A DNA stretch of 64,000 bases from IMG/VR virus record IMGVR_UViG_3300042446_001954, positions 16,708 to 80,707 of that record. One strand, written 5' to 3'. A program made the position numbers and the translations under genes. This document shows, piece after piece, positions 51,451-64,000 of this stretch. Every line of letters begins with the position of its first letter. Position 1 is the first letter of the stretch. Under the pieces are notes generated by a model. It saw only the letters and a program-made list of their open reading frames with translations. It ran no database searches and was not told the DNA's origin. The DNA comes from a virus.

Positions 51451-52014
51451 ATGGAACAAGAAACAATACCAATGCCGGTTGCAAAACCAAAAAGGCATTA
51501 CATCAACAACGCAGATTTTTGCCAAGCACTCTTGCAATACCAAGCGGCTGTAGCTGAGGCAAAAAAGACTGGTGCACCGAAACCAAAAATTCCCAACTAC
51601 ATTGGCGAATGCTTTATGAAGATTGCTGAAGGTCTGTCACACAAACCAAACTTTATTAACTATTCATACCGAGATGAGATGGTCGGTGACGGAATTGAAA
51701 ACTGTCTTATGTACTTTGAAAACTTTGACGTTTCTAAGTCGAGCAATCCCTTTGCATACTTCACACAAATTATTTACTTTGCATTCTTACGTAGAATACA
51801 AAAAGAAAAGAAACAACTCTATGTAAAGTACAAAGCAACAGAACAGTTTGGTATCTTCAATGAATCTGAACTGATGGGTTACGATGATACTCCAGCTAAG
51901 CCTTTTGAACTATACGAAAACATTTCCGACTTCATTGAAACATTTGAAGAAACCAAGAAAAAGAAAAAGGAAATAAAGAAGAACAAAGGTATTGAGAAGT
52001 TTTTGGAAGAATAA
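51451..52014 (+). CDS. gp55: Late transcription sigma factor gp55
   Basis: A 187-residue protein. The ATG at 51451 (MEQETIPMPVAKPKRHYINN) follows an AAAGGT ribosome site; an in-frame GTG at 51418 is less likely. Family features are the YINNADFCQALLQYQ start, ECFMKIAEGLSHKPNFINYS, RDEMVGDGIENCLMYFENFD and NPFAYFTQIIYFAFLRRIQK, equivalent to sigma region 2. In T4, gp55 directs RNA polymerase to TATAAATA promoters together with gp33 and the gp45 clamp. Such motifs are present before structural genes here. gp33 is not seen in this window. Confidence 0.9.
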   Translation: MEQETIPMPVAKPKRHYINNADFCQALLQYQAAVAEAKKTGAPKPKIPNYIGECFMKIAEGLSHKPNFINYSYRDEMVGDGIENCLMYFENFDVSKSSNPFAYFTQIIYFAFLRRIQKEKKQLYVKYKATEQFGIFNESELMGYDDTPAKPFELYENISDFIETFEETKKKKKEIKKNKGIEKFLEE

Positions 52015-52015
52015 T

Positions 52016-52420
52016 ATGAAAATCGGTTTTACATGTTCATGCTTTGATTTATTCCATGCTGGTCACGTATTGATGCTTGAAGAAGCAAAACAACACTGTG
52101 ATTACCTGATTGTTGGTCTTCAGACCGATCCAACAATAGATAGACCGGAGAAAAATAAACCGGTACAAAAAGTTTACGAACGGTATGTGCAACTCAAAGG
52201 TTGCAAGTACGTTGATGAAATTATACCGTATTCCACTGAGGAAGACTTGTTGAATCTATTGACAACAGTGAACTATCATGTTAGAATACTTGGCGAGGAG
52301 TATAGGACTAAAACCTTTACTGGCAAACATCTGGACAAAGAGTTTTATTACAACTCCCGACCACATACGTATAGCAGTACCGAATTGAGGAAACGAATTG
52401 AGAGTCGCAATAATAACTGA
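52016..52420 (+). CDS. Cytidylyltransferase-like protein (TagD family)
   Basis: A 134-residue nucleotidylyltransferase. The start at 52016 (MKIGFTCSCFDLFHAGHVLM) follows the gp55 stop by one base; a longer frame runs inside gp55. FHAGH (His14, His17) is the HxGH catalytic motif and a YSSTELRKRI stretch near residue 119 corresponds to the ISST-type motif. It resembles glycerol-3-phosphate or ADP-heptose-type cytidylyltransferases, which activate small phosphorylated polyols or sugars. Its place between gp55 and gp47 does not reveal the pathway. Confidence 0.75.
   Translation: MKIGFTCSCFDLFHAGHVLMLEEAKQHCDYLIVGLQTDPTIDRPEKNKPVQKVYERYVQLKGCKYVDEIIPYSTEEDLLNLLTTVNYHVRILGEEYRTKTFTGKHLDKEFYYNSRPHTYSSTELRKRIESRNNN
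52386..52400 (+). promoter_or_regulatory. Ribosome site deciding a TTG start for gp47
   Basis: GAGGAA at 52386-52391 is 6 bases before TTG at 52398, which is the only plausible initiation codon upstream of the essential DQH motif of gp47. Confidence 0.6.
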
Positions 52421-54097: not shown

Positions 54098-55812
54098 TGA
54101 TTATTTTTCAAAAAGTTCGGTGGAAAAATTTTCTTTCCACAGGTAACGCATTTACAGAAATTGACCTGACAAGGTCAACAAATACCCTAATAGTTGGTCA
54201 CAACGGTGCAGGTAAGTCAACCATACTGGATGCACTCACGTTCGGGCTCTTTGGTAAACCTTTCCGTAAGATTAACAAACCTCAGTTGATGAACACAATC
54301 AATAACTCGGACTGTGTAGTTGAGATCGAGTTATTGATTGGTAAAAAACAATACAAGGTTGTTAGGAGTATTAAACCCAATACGTTTGAAATCTATTGTG
54401 ACGCTGTACTTGTTAATCAGGATGCAAAAGCAAAAGACTATCAAGAACACCTCGAAAAGTTCATTCTTAAACTTAATTATAAATCGTTTACGCAAGTAGT
54501 GATACTTGGTTCCGCGTCTTTTGTTCCGTTCATGCAGTTATCGCCTGCTGACCGCAGAGCAATTATTGAGGACTTGCTTGACATTCAAATTTTCTCCTCT
54601 ATGAATGCCATCGTAAAGAATAAGATTTCAACAATTAAAGATGAACAGAAAACGGTTGAATATACGGTCAAGTTGACCACTGAAAAAATAAATTTACAGA
54701 AACAGAATCTGGAAGAAAACAAGAAGAACCATCTTGTTGAAATCAACAAAAAGGTTAAAGAAGTAACAGACAACGACACGTATCTGAACAAAGTTGCAAA
54801 AGATATTGTACTGATACAGAAACACATCAAACAGTTGACGGATAAAATTTCAGATAAAACTACTGTTGCATCCAGAAGTACAAAGTTGATAACTCTACAA
54901 TCTAAGTTTGAAGACAATGTAAGAAAGTTAAACAAAGAAATTTCTTTCTATGAGAACAACGATAACTGTCCGACATGTCAACAAGCTATTGCAATAGAAA
55001 CAAAAGATAGCCAAGTAACAGGTAAACAACTTAAGATTACAGAAATAACAACCGCCACAACAAAGCTGGAGCAAGAACTACAGAACGTTTATGACCGTTT
55101 GGAAGAAATTGAAGGCGTACAAAAGCATATCAATGCACATAATTCCGAAATCGTTAAGTTAAATACGCAAGTATCAAGCATCAATACGTACAATGCAAAA
55201 CTACTAAAAGAAATTGCAGAACTTAGAACACGTACCGTTTCAACGGAAAATGATGATGAAAAGTTAAAAGTTTTGAATGCTGAACTCCAAGAAGCCGAAA
55301 CTCTTGCAGAAAAACTATCCTTAGATAAACAATATCATGAGTTTGCCGCAACACTTCTTAGAGATACTGGCATTAAAACTAAAATTATTAAACAGTATCT
55401 CCCTGTTATGAACAAGTTAATTAACAAGTACCTAACATCAATGGACTTCTTTGTTAACTTTAATTTGAATGAATCGTTCGAAGAAACAATCAAGTCTCGT
55501 CATCGTGATGAATTCTCCTATGCATCATTCTCTGAAGGAGAAAAGATGCGTATTGATCTTGCTCTCCTGTTCACATGGAGACAGATTGCCAAGATGAAGA
55601 ACTCGGTGAATACAAATCTATTGGTTCTTGACGAAGTGTTCGATTCTTCTCTTGACGGTGTTGGTACAGAAGAATTCCTTAAACTTCTGAACAGCCTAGA
55701 TAATAATACAAATGTATTTGTAATCTCACATAAAGGTGACCAACTTTTTGATAAGTTCAGGTCCGTAATTAAATTTCAAAAGACAAATAACTTCTCACAG
55801 GTCGTAAAATGA
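54097..55812 (+). CDS. gp46: Recombination nuclease subunit gp46 (Rad50/SbcC-like)
   Basis: A 571-residue SMC-like ATPase. Walker A is GHNGAGKST (34-42); the two coiled-coil arms meet at a zinc-hook CPTC (Cys291, Cys294); the signature SFSEGEKMRIDLALLF and Walker B LLVLDEVFDSSLD are in the C-terminal part. It forms the gp46-gp47 nuclease that processes DNA ends. The length is close to T4 gp46 (560 aa). It overlaps the upstream and downstream genes by 1 and 4 bases. Confidence 0.93.
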   Translation: MIIFQKVRWKNFLSTGNAFTEIDLTRSTNTLIVGHNGAGKSTILDALTFGLFGKPFRKINKPQLMNTINNSDCVVEIELLIGKKQYKVVRSIKPNTFEIYCDAVLVNQDAKAKDYQEHLEKFILKLNYKSFTQVVILGSASFVPFMQLSPADRRAIIEDLLDIQIFSSMNAIVKNKISTIKDEQKTVEYTVKLTTEKINLQKQNLEENKKNHLVEINKKVKEVTDNDTYLNKVAKDIVLIQKHIKQLTDKISDKTTVASRSTKLITLQSKFEDNVRKLNKEISFYENNDNCPTCQQAIAIETKDSQVTGKQLKITEITTATTKLEQELQNVYDRLEEIEGVQKHINAHNSEIVKLNTQVSSINTYNAKLLKEIAELRTRTVSTENDDEKLKVLNAELQEAETLAEKLSLDKQYHEFAATLLRDTGIKTKIIKQYLPVMNKLINKYLTSMDFFVNFNLNESFEETIKSRHRDEFSYASFSEGEKMRIDLALLFTWRQIAKMKNSVNTNLLVLDEVFDSSLDGVGTEEFLKLLNSLDNNTNVFVISHKGDQLFDKFRSVIKFQKTNNFSQVVK

Positions 55813-60892: not shown

Positions 60893-61834
60893 ATGGAAAG
60901 CAACCAAATGCTATGGGTGGAAAAGTATCGTCCTCACAAAATTGAGGACTGTATTCTTCCGGAGTCTATTAAAACAACCTTTCAGGAATATGTTAACAGA
61001 AAAGAAATCCCAAATTTGCTACTTGCTGGATCCGCAGGGGTCGGCAAAACTACAATCGCAAAAGCCCTATGTGAAGAAGTTGGCTGTGACTACATCGTCA
61101 TCAACGGGTCGGACGAAAGCGGCATTGACACATTCCGCAACAAAATCAAAAACTATGCATCATCAATGAGCCTTTCTGGTGGCCGCAAGGTCATCATTAT
61201 TGATGAAGCTGATTATCTAAATCCAAATTCCACACAACCTGCACTCCGTGGTGCAATGGAAGAATTCGCAGTTAACTGTTCTTTCATCTTTACTTGTAAC
61301 TTCAAGAATCGTATCATTGATCCGTTACATTCTCGTTGTTCTGTTGTTGAATTCAAGATTCAAAATGGTCAAAAAGCTAAGATGGCCGCACAGTTCTTCA
61401 AGCGTGTGGAATGGATTCTTGAACAAGAGAACGTTGTATACGACAAGCAAGTTGTAGCATCAGTTATTACAAAACACTTTCCAGATAATCGCCGTGTTCT
61501 CAATGAACTACAGCGTTATTCTGTTGGTGGTACAATTGACAAGGGCATCCTTGCATCTGTATCCGACCTACAAATTTCTGATTTAATTAAAGCCGTAAAA
61601 GAGAAAGACTTTGGTCTGGCTCGAAAGTGGGTTATCAATAATATTGACTCCGATTCAGCTTCTATCTTCAGAAAGATTTATGAATCTCTTTATGAGGTTA
61701 TGACACCAGATAGTATTCCTCAAGCAGTTTTGCATCTTGCAAAATATCAGTATCAATCTGCATTCGTTGCAGACCAAGAGATTAACCTGATGGCATTCCT
61801 GACAGAATTGATGGCCGATTGTTCTTTTAAGTGA
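60893..61834 (+). CDS. gp44: Clamp loader large subunit gp44
   Basis: A 313-residue AAA+ ATPase. LWVEKYRPHKIEDCILPE is the family opening, Walker A is GSAGVGKT (46-53), the DEAD box is IIIDEADYL (104-107), and HSRCSVVEFKI gives the SRC arginine-finger motif. Four copies with one gp62 load the gp45 clamp. The length is near T4 gp44 (319 aa). A GGAG ribosome site lies 7 bases upstream. Confidence 0.95.
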   Translation: MESNQMLWVEKYRPHKIEDCILPESIKTTFQEYVNRKEIPNLLLAGSAGVGKTTIAKALCEEVGCDYIVINGSDESGIDTFRNKIKNYASSMSLSGGRKVIIIDEADYLNPNSTQPALRGAMEEFAVNCSFIFTCNFKNRIIDPLHSRCSVVEFKIQNGQKAKMAAQFFKRVEWILEQENVVYDKQVVASVITKHFPDNRRVLNELQRYSVGGTIDKGILASVSDLQISDLIKAVKEKDFGLARKWVINNIDSDSASIFRKIYESLYEVMTPDSIPQAVLHLAKYQYQSAFVADQEINLMAFLTELMADCSFK

Positions 61835-61841
61835 GAATAAT

Positions 61842-62225
61842 ATGAGCCCATTTGATTTTGTTGAAGTAGTTCTAAACAAAAGAAATAAGTTTTCTGATGA
61901 AGAATTAGATTTCAAATCATATAAACCCTTTCTCATTAATCGTTCACTCTCATATCAACTCGATTGCATTTTATATGTAAATGAGTTGAATATGAATCAT
62001 CATCTACCAGAAACTTTACAATTCCAATATCTTCTAAATACAATTAGACCTATGAAACGCAAGTTTCACGCTTGGCAAAAACAGGCGGCGGTCAAGGATT
62101 TAGAGTGTGTTAAAGAATACTTTGGCTATTCCAACGAAAAAGCTAAAGAGGCATTACGTGTTCTTTCAGATGAACAAATCGCTTTGATAAAAGAAAAACT
62201 AGATAAAGGCGGAGTGAAAAAATAA
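61842..62225 (+). CDS. gp62: Clamp loader small subunit gp62
   Basis: A 127-residue protein (MSPFDFVEVVLNKRNKFSDE) that is shorter than T4 gp62 (187 aa) but occupies its place directly behind gp44 and carries the family pattern FLINRSLSYQLDCILYVNEL and MNHHLPETLQFQYLLNTIRP, plus KRKFHAWQKQ. It completes the clamp-loader complex. The gene starts 8 bases after gp44 and overlaps regA by one base. Confidence 0.88.
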   Translation: MSPFDFVEVVLNKRNKFSDEELDFKSYKPFLINRSLSYQLDCILYVNELNMNHHLPETLQFQYLLNTIRPMKRKFHAWQKQAAVKDLECVKEYFGYSNEKAKEALRVLSDEQIALIKEKLDKGGVKK

Positions 62226-62638
62226 TGATTAAAATAGAAGATATGGTAGAGGTGACACTAGGTGAAAAGGACGACTTTTTAAAAGTACGTGAAACTCTCA
62301 CACGCATCGGTGTTGCATCCAAAAAAGAAAAAATACTTTACCAATCTTGCCACATTCTACATAAGCAAGGTAAGTATTATATTGTACATTTTAAAGAACT
62401 GTTTTCTTTGGATGGTAAACCAACCGATCTCACCGAGAATGATATTGCTCGGAGAAACACTGTCACCAACTTGCTGGAAGACTGGGAACTTATTAAAATT
62501 GTTAGAAAAGAACAGACTGTGGAGCCGACAGTCTCTTTATCTCAAGTTAAAATTCTGTCTCACAAAGAGAAGAACGATTGGCAACTTGTACCCAAATATA
62601 ACATTGGTAGCAAAAAACCACAATCGGCGGATAAATAA
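62225..62638 (+). CDS. regA: Translational repressor RegA
   Basis: A 137-residue RNA-binding repressor very similar to T4 RegA (122 aa): DDFLKVRETLTRIGVASKKE, KILYQSCHILHKQGKYYIVH, LTENDIARRNTVTNLLEDWE and WQLVPKYNIGS. In T4 it blocks ribosome binding on early mRNAs, including gene 45 and its own operon. It is the last gene of the gp45-gp44-gp62 cluster. A RegA-like site is visible at the gp45 start; no good match is seen at gp44, gp62 or regA. Confidence 0.93.
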   Translation: MIKIEDMVEVTLGEKDDFLKVRETLTRIGVASKKEKILYQSCHILHKQGKYYIVHFKELFSLDGKPTDLTENDIARRNTVTNLLEDWELIKIVRKEQTVEPTVSLSQVKILSHKEKNDWQLVPKYNIGSKKPQSADK

Positions 62639-62709
62639 AAAGAGCCCACCTTAGGGCTGTTTGATGCTATGGTAAAAGGCGTCCGGGCAATTGCACTGTC
62701 ACTCGTTAG

Positions 62710-62739
62710 TTGACCCTGTATTAAGTAAGCAGGAATACT
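62710..62739 (+). promoter_or_regulatory. Weak candidate promoter upstream of Hsp20
   Basis: TTGACC (62710-62715) and AATACT (62734-62739) are separated by 18 bases. Only four of six -10 bases match, so this is tentative. The -10 overlaps the start of a hairpin. Confidence 0.3.
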
Positions 62740-62762
62740 ATGCCTTCGGGGTAGTAATTTTA
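62736..62762 (+). terminator. UUCG hairpin upstream of Hsp20
   Basis: TACTAT-G-CC (62736-62744), loop TTCG (62745-62748) and GGGTAGTA (62749-62756) form a stem with a bulged G and a C(UUCG)G closing pair, then ATTTTAATT. It resembles a terminator for the regA operon, or a 5' leader structure. Confidence 0.5.
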
Positions 62763-62787
62763 ATTAACTCGCTTTTAGGAGAAAACT

Positions 62788-63258
62788 ATGACACATCTAT
62801 CACTGCCATACGGCAAATCTTTGCTTCCGTCCACTGTCGGTTTCGACCGACTACTAAGCACTATCAAGGAATACGACAATCTTCTTGGTCAAGGTGTTAA
62901 GGTTCAAAGCTATCCACCATACAACATTCTTAAAGAAGATGATGAAAATTACACGATTGAAATTGCCGTTTCAGGCTTCAAGCGTGATGAAATTGAAATC
63001 ACTTCGGAAGGTGGAAAACTTTACGTGAATGGATCAATCAAGACCGCAAGAACCTCCGATAAGTATCTACACCGTGGTATCGGTACAAGGGATTTTTCCC
63101 ACAAATTTGTACTTTCTGATACCATCGTTGTTAAAGATGCTGATATCGCTGACGGTTTATTGGTCATCAATCTGGTAAACATCATTCCAGAAGAAAAGAA
63201 ACCACGAAAAATTGAGATCGGTTGTAGCAAAAATACAACAGAAGCCTTGACAAAGTGA
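62788..63258 (+). CDS. Small heat-shock protein (Hsp20/alpha-crystallin)
   Basis: A 156-residue Hsp20. PPYNILKEDDENYTIEIAVS begins the alpha-crystallin domain, followed by GFKRDEIEITSEGGKLYVNG, GIGTRDFSHKFVLSDTIVVK and DGLLVINLVNIIPEEKKPRK. Such proteins are widely carried by cyanophages and are thought to prevent aggregation during infection. A TAGGAG ribosome site lies upstream in a 149-base leader with a possible promoter and a UUCG hairpin. Confidence 0.92.
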   Translation: MTHLSLPYGKSLLPSTVGFDRLLSTIKEYDNLLGQGVKVQSYPPYNILKEDDENYTIEIAVSGFKRDEIEITSEGGKLYVNGSIKTARTSDKYLHRGIGTRDFSHKFVLSDTIVVKDADIADGLLVINLVNIIPEEKKPRKIEIGCSKNTTEALTK

Positions 63259-63275
63259 CGTAGCTCTGTTAGAAT
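63247..63275 (+). promoter_or_regulatory. Near-consensus sigma-70 promoter for small membrane-protein operon
   Basis: TTGACA (63247-63252, exact consensus), a 17-base spacer and TAGAAT (63270-63275). The -35 box lies in the last codons of the Hsp20 gene; the -10 lies inside the left arm of a perfect inverted repeat. Confidence 0.75.
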
Positions 63276-63300
63276 CCTTGTAAGTAACTCGGATTCTAAC
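63268..63300 (+). promoter_or_regulatory. Perfect 10-base inverted repeat over -10 box and up to ATG
   Basis: GTTAGAATCC (63268-63277) and GGATTCTAAC (63291-63300) are exact inverted copies separated by 13 bases. The left arm contains the -10 box, and the right arm ends directly before the ATG at 63301. It looks like an operator. Confidence 0.65.
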
Positions 63301-63426
63301 ATGGAAATTTTCTTATCCTCATATAGTCTTTTTGTTTTAGGTACATTCCTAGGCGCACTATTGGGTCGGACATTTACTTTTGGAATCCTTGCCGTTTGTT
63401 TTTTGATTATGTTGATTAGATTATGA
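63301..63426 (+). CDS. 41-residue single-span membrane protein (short ORF)
   Basis: The ATG at 63301 opens a 41-residue frame to the TGA at 63426. The product (MEIFLSSYSLFVLGTFLGAL and then LGRTFTFGILAVCFLIMLIR) is almost entirely hydrophobic, with one or two membrane segments and a Gly-rich centre. The start sits immediately after a perfect 10-base inverted repeat and behind a strong promoter. No Shine-Dalgarno sequence is visible, so translation may be leaderless-like. The next gene begins inside its stop codon (ATGA), which supports it being translated. The function is unknown. Confidence 0.62.
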   Translation: MEIFLSSYSLFVLGTFLGALLGRTFTFGILAVCFLIMLIRL

Positions 63427-63614
63427 AAATGTATAACCCAATTAAAATGCGTAATAGAATTTCCCAAGCAGAAGTGTATTACACATATTCTCATTGGCCA
63501 TCTAAAGAAATAGATGGTGTTGAATTCTTGCCGGTTGTAAAACAACCACCCTCACAATCAAATACACAATCTATTCACTATATGCGGAAAGATTCTTTGG
63601 AGAAAATAAAATGA
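63423..63614 (+). CDS. Small conserved hypothetical protein
   Basis: A 63-residue protein (MKMYNPIKMRNRISQAEVYY) with Pro-rich centre KEIDGVEFLPVVKQPP and IHYMRKDSLEKIK end. It is coupled by ATGA overlaps both to the small membrane-protein gene and to the metallophosphoesterase gene, showing an early operon. Similar short proteins with KEIDGVxFLxV motifs occur in T4-like phages, without an assigned role. Confidence 0.65.
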   Translation: MKMYNPIKMRNRISQAEVYYTYSHWPSKEIDGVEFLPVVKQPPSQSNTQSIHYMRKDSLEKIK

Positions 63615-64000
63615 AAGTTGCTCTCTGTTCTGATGTTCATCTGGAATTCGGTACGATTTCTTTGGAGAACACCGAAAATGCGGATGTGTTGATTCTCTCT
63701 GGTGATATTTGTGTTGCCAAGGAAGTCTTTGCCCGTGATACTTATAACCTCCGAGGTGAGCATGATAAGTCTAATAAAATTCATACTTTCTTCCAAGAAT
63801 GCTCTGCACGATTTCCTCATGTCATTTACATTCTCGGAAACCATGAACATTATCACGGTGACTTTGCTAAGTCTCTTACAAATCTCCGTACTAACCTTGG
63901 TTATCTGGTCAATCTTCATATTCTAGAAAAAGAATGTGTTGATATCAATGGCACAATGTTTTTTGGTGCGTCACTATGGACCGATATGAACAAGGAAGAT
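63611..64000 (+). CDS. Metallophosphoesterase, 3' truncated
   Basis: The first 130 residues of a calcineurin-like phosphoesterase, open to the end of the window. Motifs are CSDVHLE (Asp8, His10), LILSGDICV and LGNHEHYHGD, with ENADVLIL between. These form the dinuclear metal site. It is distinct from gp47, having the short-spaced layout of standalone phosphatases; the substrate could be a nucleotide or a phosphoprotein. The start overlaps the preceding stop as ATGA. Confidence 0.82.
   Translation, partial: MKVALCSDVHLEFGTISLENTENADVLILSGDICVAKEVFARDTYNLRGEHDKSNKIHTFFQECSARFPHVIYILGNHEHYHGDFAKSLTNLRTNLGYLVNLHILEKECVDINGTMFFGASLWTDMNKED

What the first reader, a model, noticed from the sequence alone, without database searches (positions are those of the whole stretch)
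63247..63426. Palindrome over a strong promoter followed by a tiny membrane-protein gene
A perfect 10-base inverted repeat holds the -10 box in its left arm and touches the ATG with its right arm, leaving a short leader without a visible ribosome site. This suggests a tight repressor operator and a leaderless-like start for a 41-residue hydrophobic protein, missed by length-limited gene callers. It could be a toxin-like or membrane-disturbing early protein whose timing must be controlled.
Basis: partly seen in the sequence, partly recalled or inferred. Interest (0 to 1): 0.6.

Follow-up and report, generated by a model that had tools for sequence, protein, structure and literature searches.

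The report
Read-through silencing hairpin around phage promoter
In a T4-like virus of bacteria, a promoter sits inside an inverted repeat that would fold into an RNA hairpin only when a message runs in from the gene upstream, probably hiding the start codon of a tiny membrane-protein gene so that the gene is read only from its own promoter; related viruses keep the trick while changing the letters.

Summary
In detail: TTGACA-17-TAGAAT with an extended -10, a perfect 11-bp inverted repeat with the -10 in its left arm, and the right arm reaching into the ATG of a 41-codon frame. The frame is a real gene: it is conserved in about 90 viral contigs, under purifying selection, and joined by ATGA overlaps to a 63-aa gene and a metallophosphoesterase. 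The operator/leaderless/toxin reading is not the best one. The predicted leader is about 19 nt. Across 51 distinct upstream regions at the same junction, the repeat changes sequence while pairing persists (18 alignable: 97.8% standard pairs, changes on both sides at 4 of 10 pairs, nine G·U cells, no A·C). The right arm usually covers the start codon or Shine-Dalgarno slot. Some relatives instead carry a terminator with the -35 in its loop, or a leaderless-like start. Best explanation: an RNA hairpin formed only in read-through transcripts from hsp20 silences the operon unless it is transcribed from its own host-type promoter. This works like T4 genes e, soc and I-TevI, but with a sigma70-type rather than a late promoter. 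A DNA operator is not excluded, because the loop is also conserved within the window's clade. New variant of a known kind.

The parts
62788..63258 (+). hsp20 (small heat-shock protein) gene; its last codons hold the -35 box and its stop codon lies in the promoter spacer
   Evidence: ORF; Pfam HSP20 5.3e-16 and PHROG 432
63247..63275 (+). sigma70-type promoter TTGACA-17-TAGAAT with extended -10 (TG); predicted start about 63282
   Evidence: -35 and -10 kept in relatives; start site inferred, not measured
63267..63277 (+). left arm of inverted repeat (contains -10); present only in read-through RNA
   Evidence: covariation
63278..63290 (+). 13-nt loop; predicted transcription start lies in it; conserved 10-12 of 13 within the window's clade
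63291..63301 (+). right arm; contains weak GGA ribosome-site core and the A of the start codon
   Evidence: fold
63301..63426 (+). p41: 41-aa hydrophobic, probably membrane protein; motif GAFxGALxGRxxTF
   Evidence: alignment A2, contigs, pN/pS 0.06-0.64; no Pfam hit and no significant PHROG hit
63423..63614 (+). p63: 63-aa conserved protein, ATGA overlap with p41; predicted small beta fold
   Evidence: alignment A1, contigs; model pLDDT 84; no significant PDB fold match
63611..64000 (+). metallophosphoesterase gene, ATGA overlap with p63, runs off the contig end
   Evidence: Pfam PF00149 5.3e-06, PHROG 1649 1.5e-21

Best explanation
The inverted repeat is an RNA device that insulates the p41-p63-phosphoesterase operon from read-through. 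No terminator-like site lies between hsp20 and p41, so RNA that comes through the replication genes (clamp loader, regA, hsp20) should run into p41. In that RNA both arms are present, the 11-bp hairpin forms, and the start codon and the slot for ribosome binding are paired, so p41 and the genes overlapping it are poorly translated. RNA begun at the promoter embedded in the left arm starts in the loop, lacks the left arm, leaves the start codon open and is translated. The operon's output is thereby tied to its own host-type (probably early) promoter. Shown by computation: the anatomy, the conservation of pairing with changing letters, and the gene's conservation. Inferred: the start site, actual read-through, the translational block and the timing.
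For: (1) Pairing outlives sequence: on 18 distinct alignable relatives (A3), 97.8% of cells are standard pairs, 4 of 10 pairs change on both sides, the covariation score is 0.324 against 0.151 shuffled (0 of 500) and at most 0.14 when slid; nine G·U cells, zero A·C. (2) Other relatives have unrelated repeats at the same junction, e.g. TATACTCCAGGTGT/ACACCTGGAGTATA (L238) with GGAG in the right arm, GTGTAGGATTC/GAGTCCTACAC (L261), ATTCCAAGTAAG/CTTACTTGGAAT (L078); the left arm always begins upstream of the predicted start, so RNA from the promoter lacks all or most of it. (3) The region -12..+3 is on average about 0.22 unpaired in read-through RNA and about 0.5 in RNA from the promoter, for the window class. 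(4) Of 51 distinct upstream regions, 36 have a hairpin over the start codon or Shine-Dalgarno slot; six have a terminator, five of them with the -35 box in its loop (L253, L254, L259, L263, L270): a different part for the same job. (5) A 1-nt loop insertion is tolerated (L210). (6) When p41 is absent the hairpin sits on the next gene, p63 (L219, L240, L078). (7) The gp45 promoter of the same phage has no such hairpin and an open AAGGAG. (8) The same logic is described for T4 e, soc, 49 and I-TevI (PMC3014915, PMC2988022).
Against: Within the window's clade the loop and the exact arm letters are kept too: 33 of 34 bases against L220, where the -35/-10 spacer keeps 5 of 13 and hsp20 third positions 65%. 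A bare hairpin does not need that. In two relatives (L269, L272) the hairpin lies upstream of the Shine-Dalgarno slot, and six (L245, L246, L257, L266, L338, L350) have no clear hairpin. No transcript data exist; read-through is inferred from the lack of a terminator. A wider test over 58 promoter clusters in the held loci gave only a weak excess of cross-start pairing (22 against mean 14.4, max 21, at -10 kcal/mol), so the device is mostly specific to this junction rather than general.
Confidence: 0.68

Rival explanations
1. The palindrome is a DNA operator: a phage or host repressor dimer binds it, covers the -10 and start site, and shuts the promoter off.
For: Perfect dyad over the -10; in the window's clade both arms and most of the loop are nearly invariant while flanks diverge; one copy per genome record fits an autoregulated operon.
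Against: Sequence turnover between clades with kept pairing; G·U but no A·C mismatches in the aligned stems; tolerated 1-bp change of spacing (L210); the repeat tracks the start codon or Shine-Dalgarno slot and is replaced by terminators in relatives; no repressor-like gene recognised in the operon.
Confidence: 0.18
2. The hairpin serves the upstream hsp20 message, as a 3' stabiliser or processing site, and its contact with the p41 start is incidental.
For: It lies directly downstream of the hsp20 stop; L269, L272 and L097 have hairpins that end short of the start codon.
Against: In most lineages the right arm ends at or within a few bases of the ATG although its sequence and the leader length differ; no U tract follows it; the hairpin straddles the downstream promoter's start.
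Confidence: 0.08
3. Face-to-face promoters: the right arm carries the same extended -10 on the opposite strand and makes antisense RNA to hsp20.
For: The mirror TGTTAGAAT is present on the minus strand at 63301-63293.
Against: The minus strand has no -35 at the right distance (TGAGGA at 63321-63316); the scan finds no minus-strand promoter there.
Confidence: 0.03
4. Chance palindrome over an ordinary promoter.
For: An 11-bp repeat by itself is expected up to about twice per contig.
Against: 43 contigs with the exact repeat and compensatory changes elsewhere.
Confidence: 0.02

Closest known systems
T4 gene e, soc, 49 and I-TevI: hairpin at the translation start formed only in longer upstream transcripts (PMC3014915, PMC2988022)
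   Same: The promoter sits so that its own RNA lacks the 5' half of a hairpin that hides the Shine-Dalgarno and/or AUG; read-through RNA is silenced.
   Different: There the embedded promoters are T4 late promoters and the regulated genes are described as all being late genes (PMC2988022); here the promoter is a near-consensus host sigma70 type, the -10 itself is in the stem, and the gene is an unknown small membrane protein. Sequence families unrelated.
Phage Aeh1 mobE hairpin (Gibb and Edgell 2009, cited in PMC2988022)
   Same: An RNA hairpin hides the ribosome site of a gene embedded in another transcription unit.
   Different: A homing endonuclease gene in an nrd operon; no operon with a phosphoesterase.
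IS10/IS50/IS200 transposase protection from read-through (own knowledge, not tested)
   Same: External transcripts fold and hide the transposase start; the element's own promoter escapes.
   Different: Mobile element ends, not a phage operon.
Palindromic repressor operators over -10 boxes
   Same: Dyad symmetry over the -10.
   Different: Here the dyad covaries like RNA and follows the start codon.

Membership tests
T4-type read-through-silenced genes (e, soc, I-TevI) | Left arm upstream of, right arm downstream of the transcription start of an embedded promoter | tested here: met
   Predicted start 63282 lies in the loop; start not measured
T4-type read-through-silenced genes (e, soc, I-TevI) | Right arm pairs the Shine-Dalgarno and/or AUG | tested here: met
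   Right arm covers GGA and the A of ATG; unpaired fraction 0.22 against 0.55
T4-type read-through-silenced genes (e, soc, I-TevI) | Upstream transcription reads into the gene | tested here: inconclusive
   Upstream genes co-directional and no terminator-like site between 62535 and 63301 on the + strand, but no RNA data
T4-type read-through-silenced genes (e, soc, I-TevI) | Embedded promoter is a phage late promoter (TATAAATA) | tested here: not met
   Promoter is sigma70-type TTGACA-17-TAGAAT; no TATAAATA near
T4-type read-through-silenced genes (e, soc, I-TevI) | Structure reduces translation in vivo | not testable with these tools
   needs a reporter assay
Repressor operator | Same half-sites recur at other regulated promoters or are kept across relatives | tested here: inconclusive
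   One copy per genome record; kept within the clade, replaced outside it
Repressor operator | A cognate DNA-binding protein | not tested
   none identified; p63 fold search not significant
Leaderless mRNA | Transcription start at or within about 5 nt of the ATG | tested here: not met
   Predicted leader 19 nt in the window; near 0 only in L338 and L350, 3 in the L253 type
Small toxin of a toxin-antitoxin pair | Match to a toxin family or an adjacent antitoxin | tested here: not met
   No Pfam or significant PHROG match; the neighbours are p63 and a phosphoesterase

The most novel reading that the evidence does not exclude
A T4-like phage lineage keeps one small operon strictly uncoupled from read-through of the replication genes, and evolution swaps the insulating part freely: a promoter-embedding start-codon hairpin, a terminator with the -35 box in its loop, or a leaderless start. 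This would be the reverse-timing counterpart of T4's late-gene hairpins, possibly doubling as a DNA operator in the window's clade.
Probability: 0.4. Interest if true: 0.62.

Novelty: new variant of a known kind. Interest (0 to 1): 0.5.

Why it matters
The T4 hairpins are described as a way to hold back late genes on early transcripts. Here the same trick appears with a host-type promoter, so it would hold back what is probably an early operon on later read-through RNA. That repeated, differently built insulators stand at one junction suggests that mistimed expression of this unknown membrane-protein operon is costly to the phage, which makes p41 and p63 good candidates for functional study. 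It also warns that palindromes over -10 boxes in compact genomes may be RNA parts and not operators.

Tried and rejected
Rfam scan of the window: nothing. Named phage records: no relative of p41 or p63; the only DNA match of the 61000-64000 region is a short stretch, annotated as the translation repressor gene, of Synechococcus phage ACG-2014e. Fold search for p63: best hits are PWWP/chromo-like barrels at E about 0.6, not significant. Generality of the device over all strong promoters in the held loci: weak excess only, much of it from this junction. gp45 promoter as a second instance in the same genome: rejected, no sequestering hairpin there. Search of cellular genomes for p63: one weak, 21-residue partial match in a MAG, no host clue. 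The literature search on transposon read-through gave no directly usable text.

Full report
What is there. The window is the last 64 kb of an 80.7-kb viral contig of a T4-like phage: clamp-loader genes, regA and hsp20 lead into the finding, and the capsid protein is about 62% identical to those of Pelagibacter phage Mosig, Methylophilales phage Melnitz and cyanophage S-SKS1. The promoter TTGACA-17-TAGAAT starts inside the last codons of hsp20, and the hsp20 stop codon lies in its spacer. The 11-bp inverted repeat 63267-63277/63291-63301 contains the -10 box on its left and ends in the ATG on its right. Downstream are three genes joined by ATGA overlaps: p41, p63 and a metallophosphoesterase.

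The small frame is a gene. p41 relatives occur in 92 matched viral stretches with invariant positions M1 E2 F11 G14 F16 G18 A19 L20 G22 R23 T26 F27. Substitutions against the window copy are mainly synonymous per site, pN/pS 0.06-0.64. p63 relatives are in 323 stretches. p41 has no Pfam match and only a non-significant PHROG one (E 0.051); p63 has neither. Neither has a relative in the named phage records. p41 also occurs elsewhere without p63, after an unrelated gene and with a good GGAG ribosome site.

Operator or RNA. The exact palindrome is in 43 other contigs. Relatives collected by their proteins rather than by the repeat gave 51 distinct upstream regions of the p41 or p63 start. My sorting of their folds: 20 of the window's class; 3 of the TAGAATTC class (L224, L243, L244); 6 of the TATACTCCAGGTG class; 3 of the GTGTAGGA class; 4 with other repeats over the start slot (L078, L097, L239, L242); 2 with a hairpin upstream of the slot (L269, L272); 6 with an intrinsic terminator (five with the -35 box in its loop, plus L095); one with a repeat before the -35 (L273); and 6 with none. 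On the 18 alignable hairpins pairing is kept at 97.8% with changes on both sides at four pairs, and departures from Watson-Crick inside the stem include nine G·U cells and no A·C. Related sequences inflate such counts: independent events are perhaps five or six by my reading, and the left arm is also held by the -10. Still, sliding the partner by 1-3 columns removes most of the signal. A one-base insertion in the loop is tolerated (L210). These facts favour RNA pairing.

How it would work. In read-through RNA the region -12..+3 is mostly paired, in RNA begun in the loop it is open: 0.22 against 0.55 unpaired for the window. The window's p41 start is the third most occluded of 79 scored in the contig, and the gp45 promoter of the same phage shows an open strong ribosome site and no such hairpin. 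No terminator-like site on the + strand separates hsp20 from p41. The same logic is described for T4 e, soc, 49 and I-TevI, where the structure on long gene e transcripts reduces lysozyme synthesis about 100-fold (PMC3014915), and where all such genes were noted to be late (PMC2988022). Here the promoter is host-type, so the timing would be reversed: silent on RNA from the replication genes, active from its own, probably early, promoter. That it is early is inference from promoter type.

What does not fit. Within the window's clade the loop and exact letters are conserved too: 33 of 34 against L220, where the -35/-10 spacer keeps 5 of 13 and third codon positions of hsp20 65%. This may reflect leader or start-site function, recent exchange, or a protein that also binds there; so an operator is kept at 18%. 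Six lineages lack the hairpin; two of them (L338, L350) seem leaderless, which would also make translation depend on their own promoter, but this is speculation.

Verdict. Observation confirmed; interpretation partly supported. A new variant of a known kind of control, with good comparative support and no experiment.

Noticed in passing
L253, L254, L259, L263, L270 (upstream of p63): Intrinsic terminator whose loop holds the -35 box of the next promoter (e.g. GGGTCTTGACAGACCCTTTTTTTT...TATAAT), followed by a predicted leader of only about 3 nt.
   Followed up: partly
window 62639-62787: Strongly structured stretch between regA and hsp20, including ACTATGCC-TTCG-GGGTAGT just upstream of the hsp20 ribosome site; no Rfam match.
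   Followed up: no
window 52259-52287: The only other exact extended -10 promoter match (TTGACA-17-TAGAAT with TG) lies inside an open reading frame, 51992-52420.
   Followed up: no
L118, L119, L120, L124 and others, between p63 and the phosphoesterase: An extra small hydrophobic ORF (MNKNSLDIAMVLCYNLAVLSG...) whose coding sequence itself contains a consensus promoter TTGACATTGCAATGGTTTTGTGTTATAAT; it is absent from the window.
   Followed up: no
L142, L146, L165, L170 (before other genes upstream of the phosphoesterase): Hairpins with the left arm in the -35/-10 spacer and the right arm holding a Shine-Dalgarno-like stretch (e.g. CCACCTTTTG/CAAAAGGTGG).
   Followed up: partly
L300-L343: p41 family also occurs without p63, directly overlapping another gene's end and with a strong GGAG ribosome site.
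   Followed up: partly
window 54298-54338: Perfect 12-bp inverted repeat with a 17-nt loop inside a coding region.
   Followed up: no
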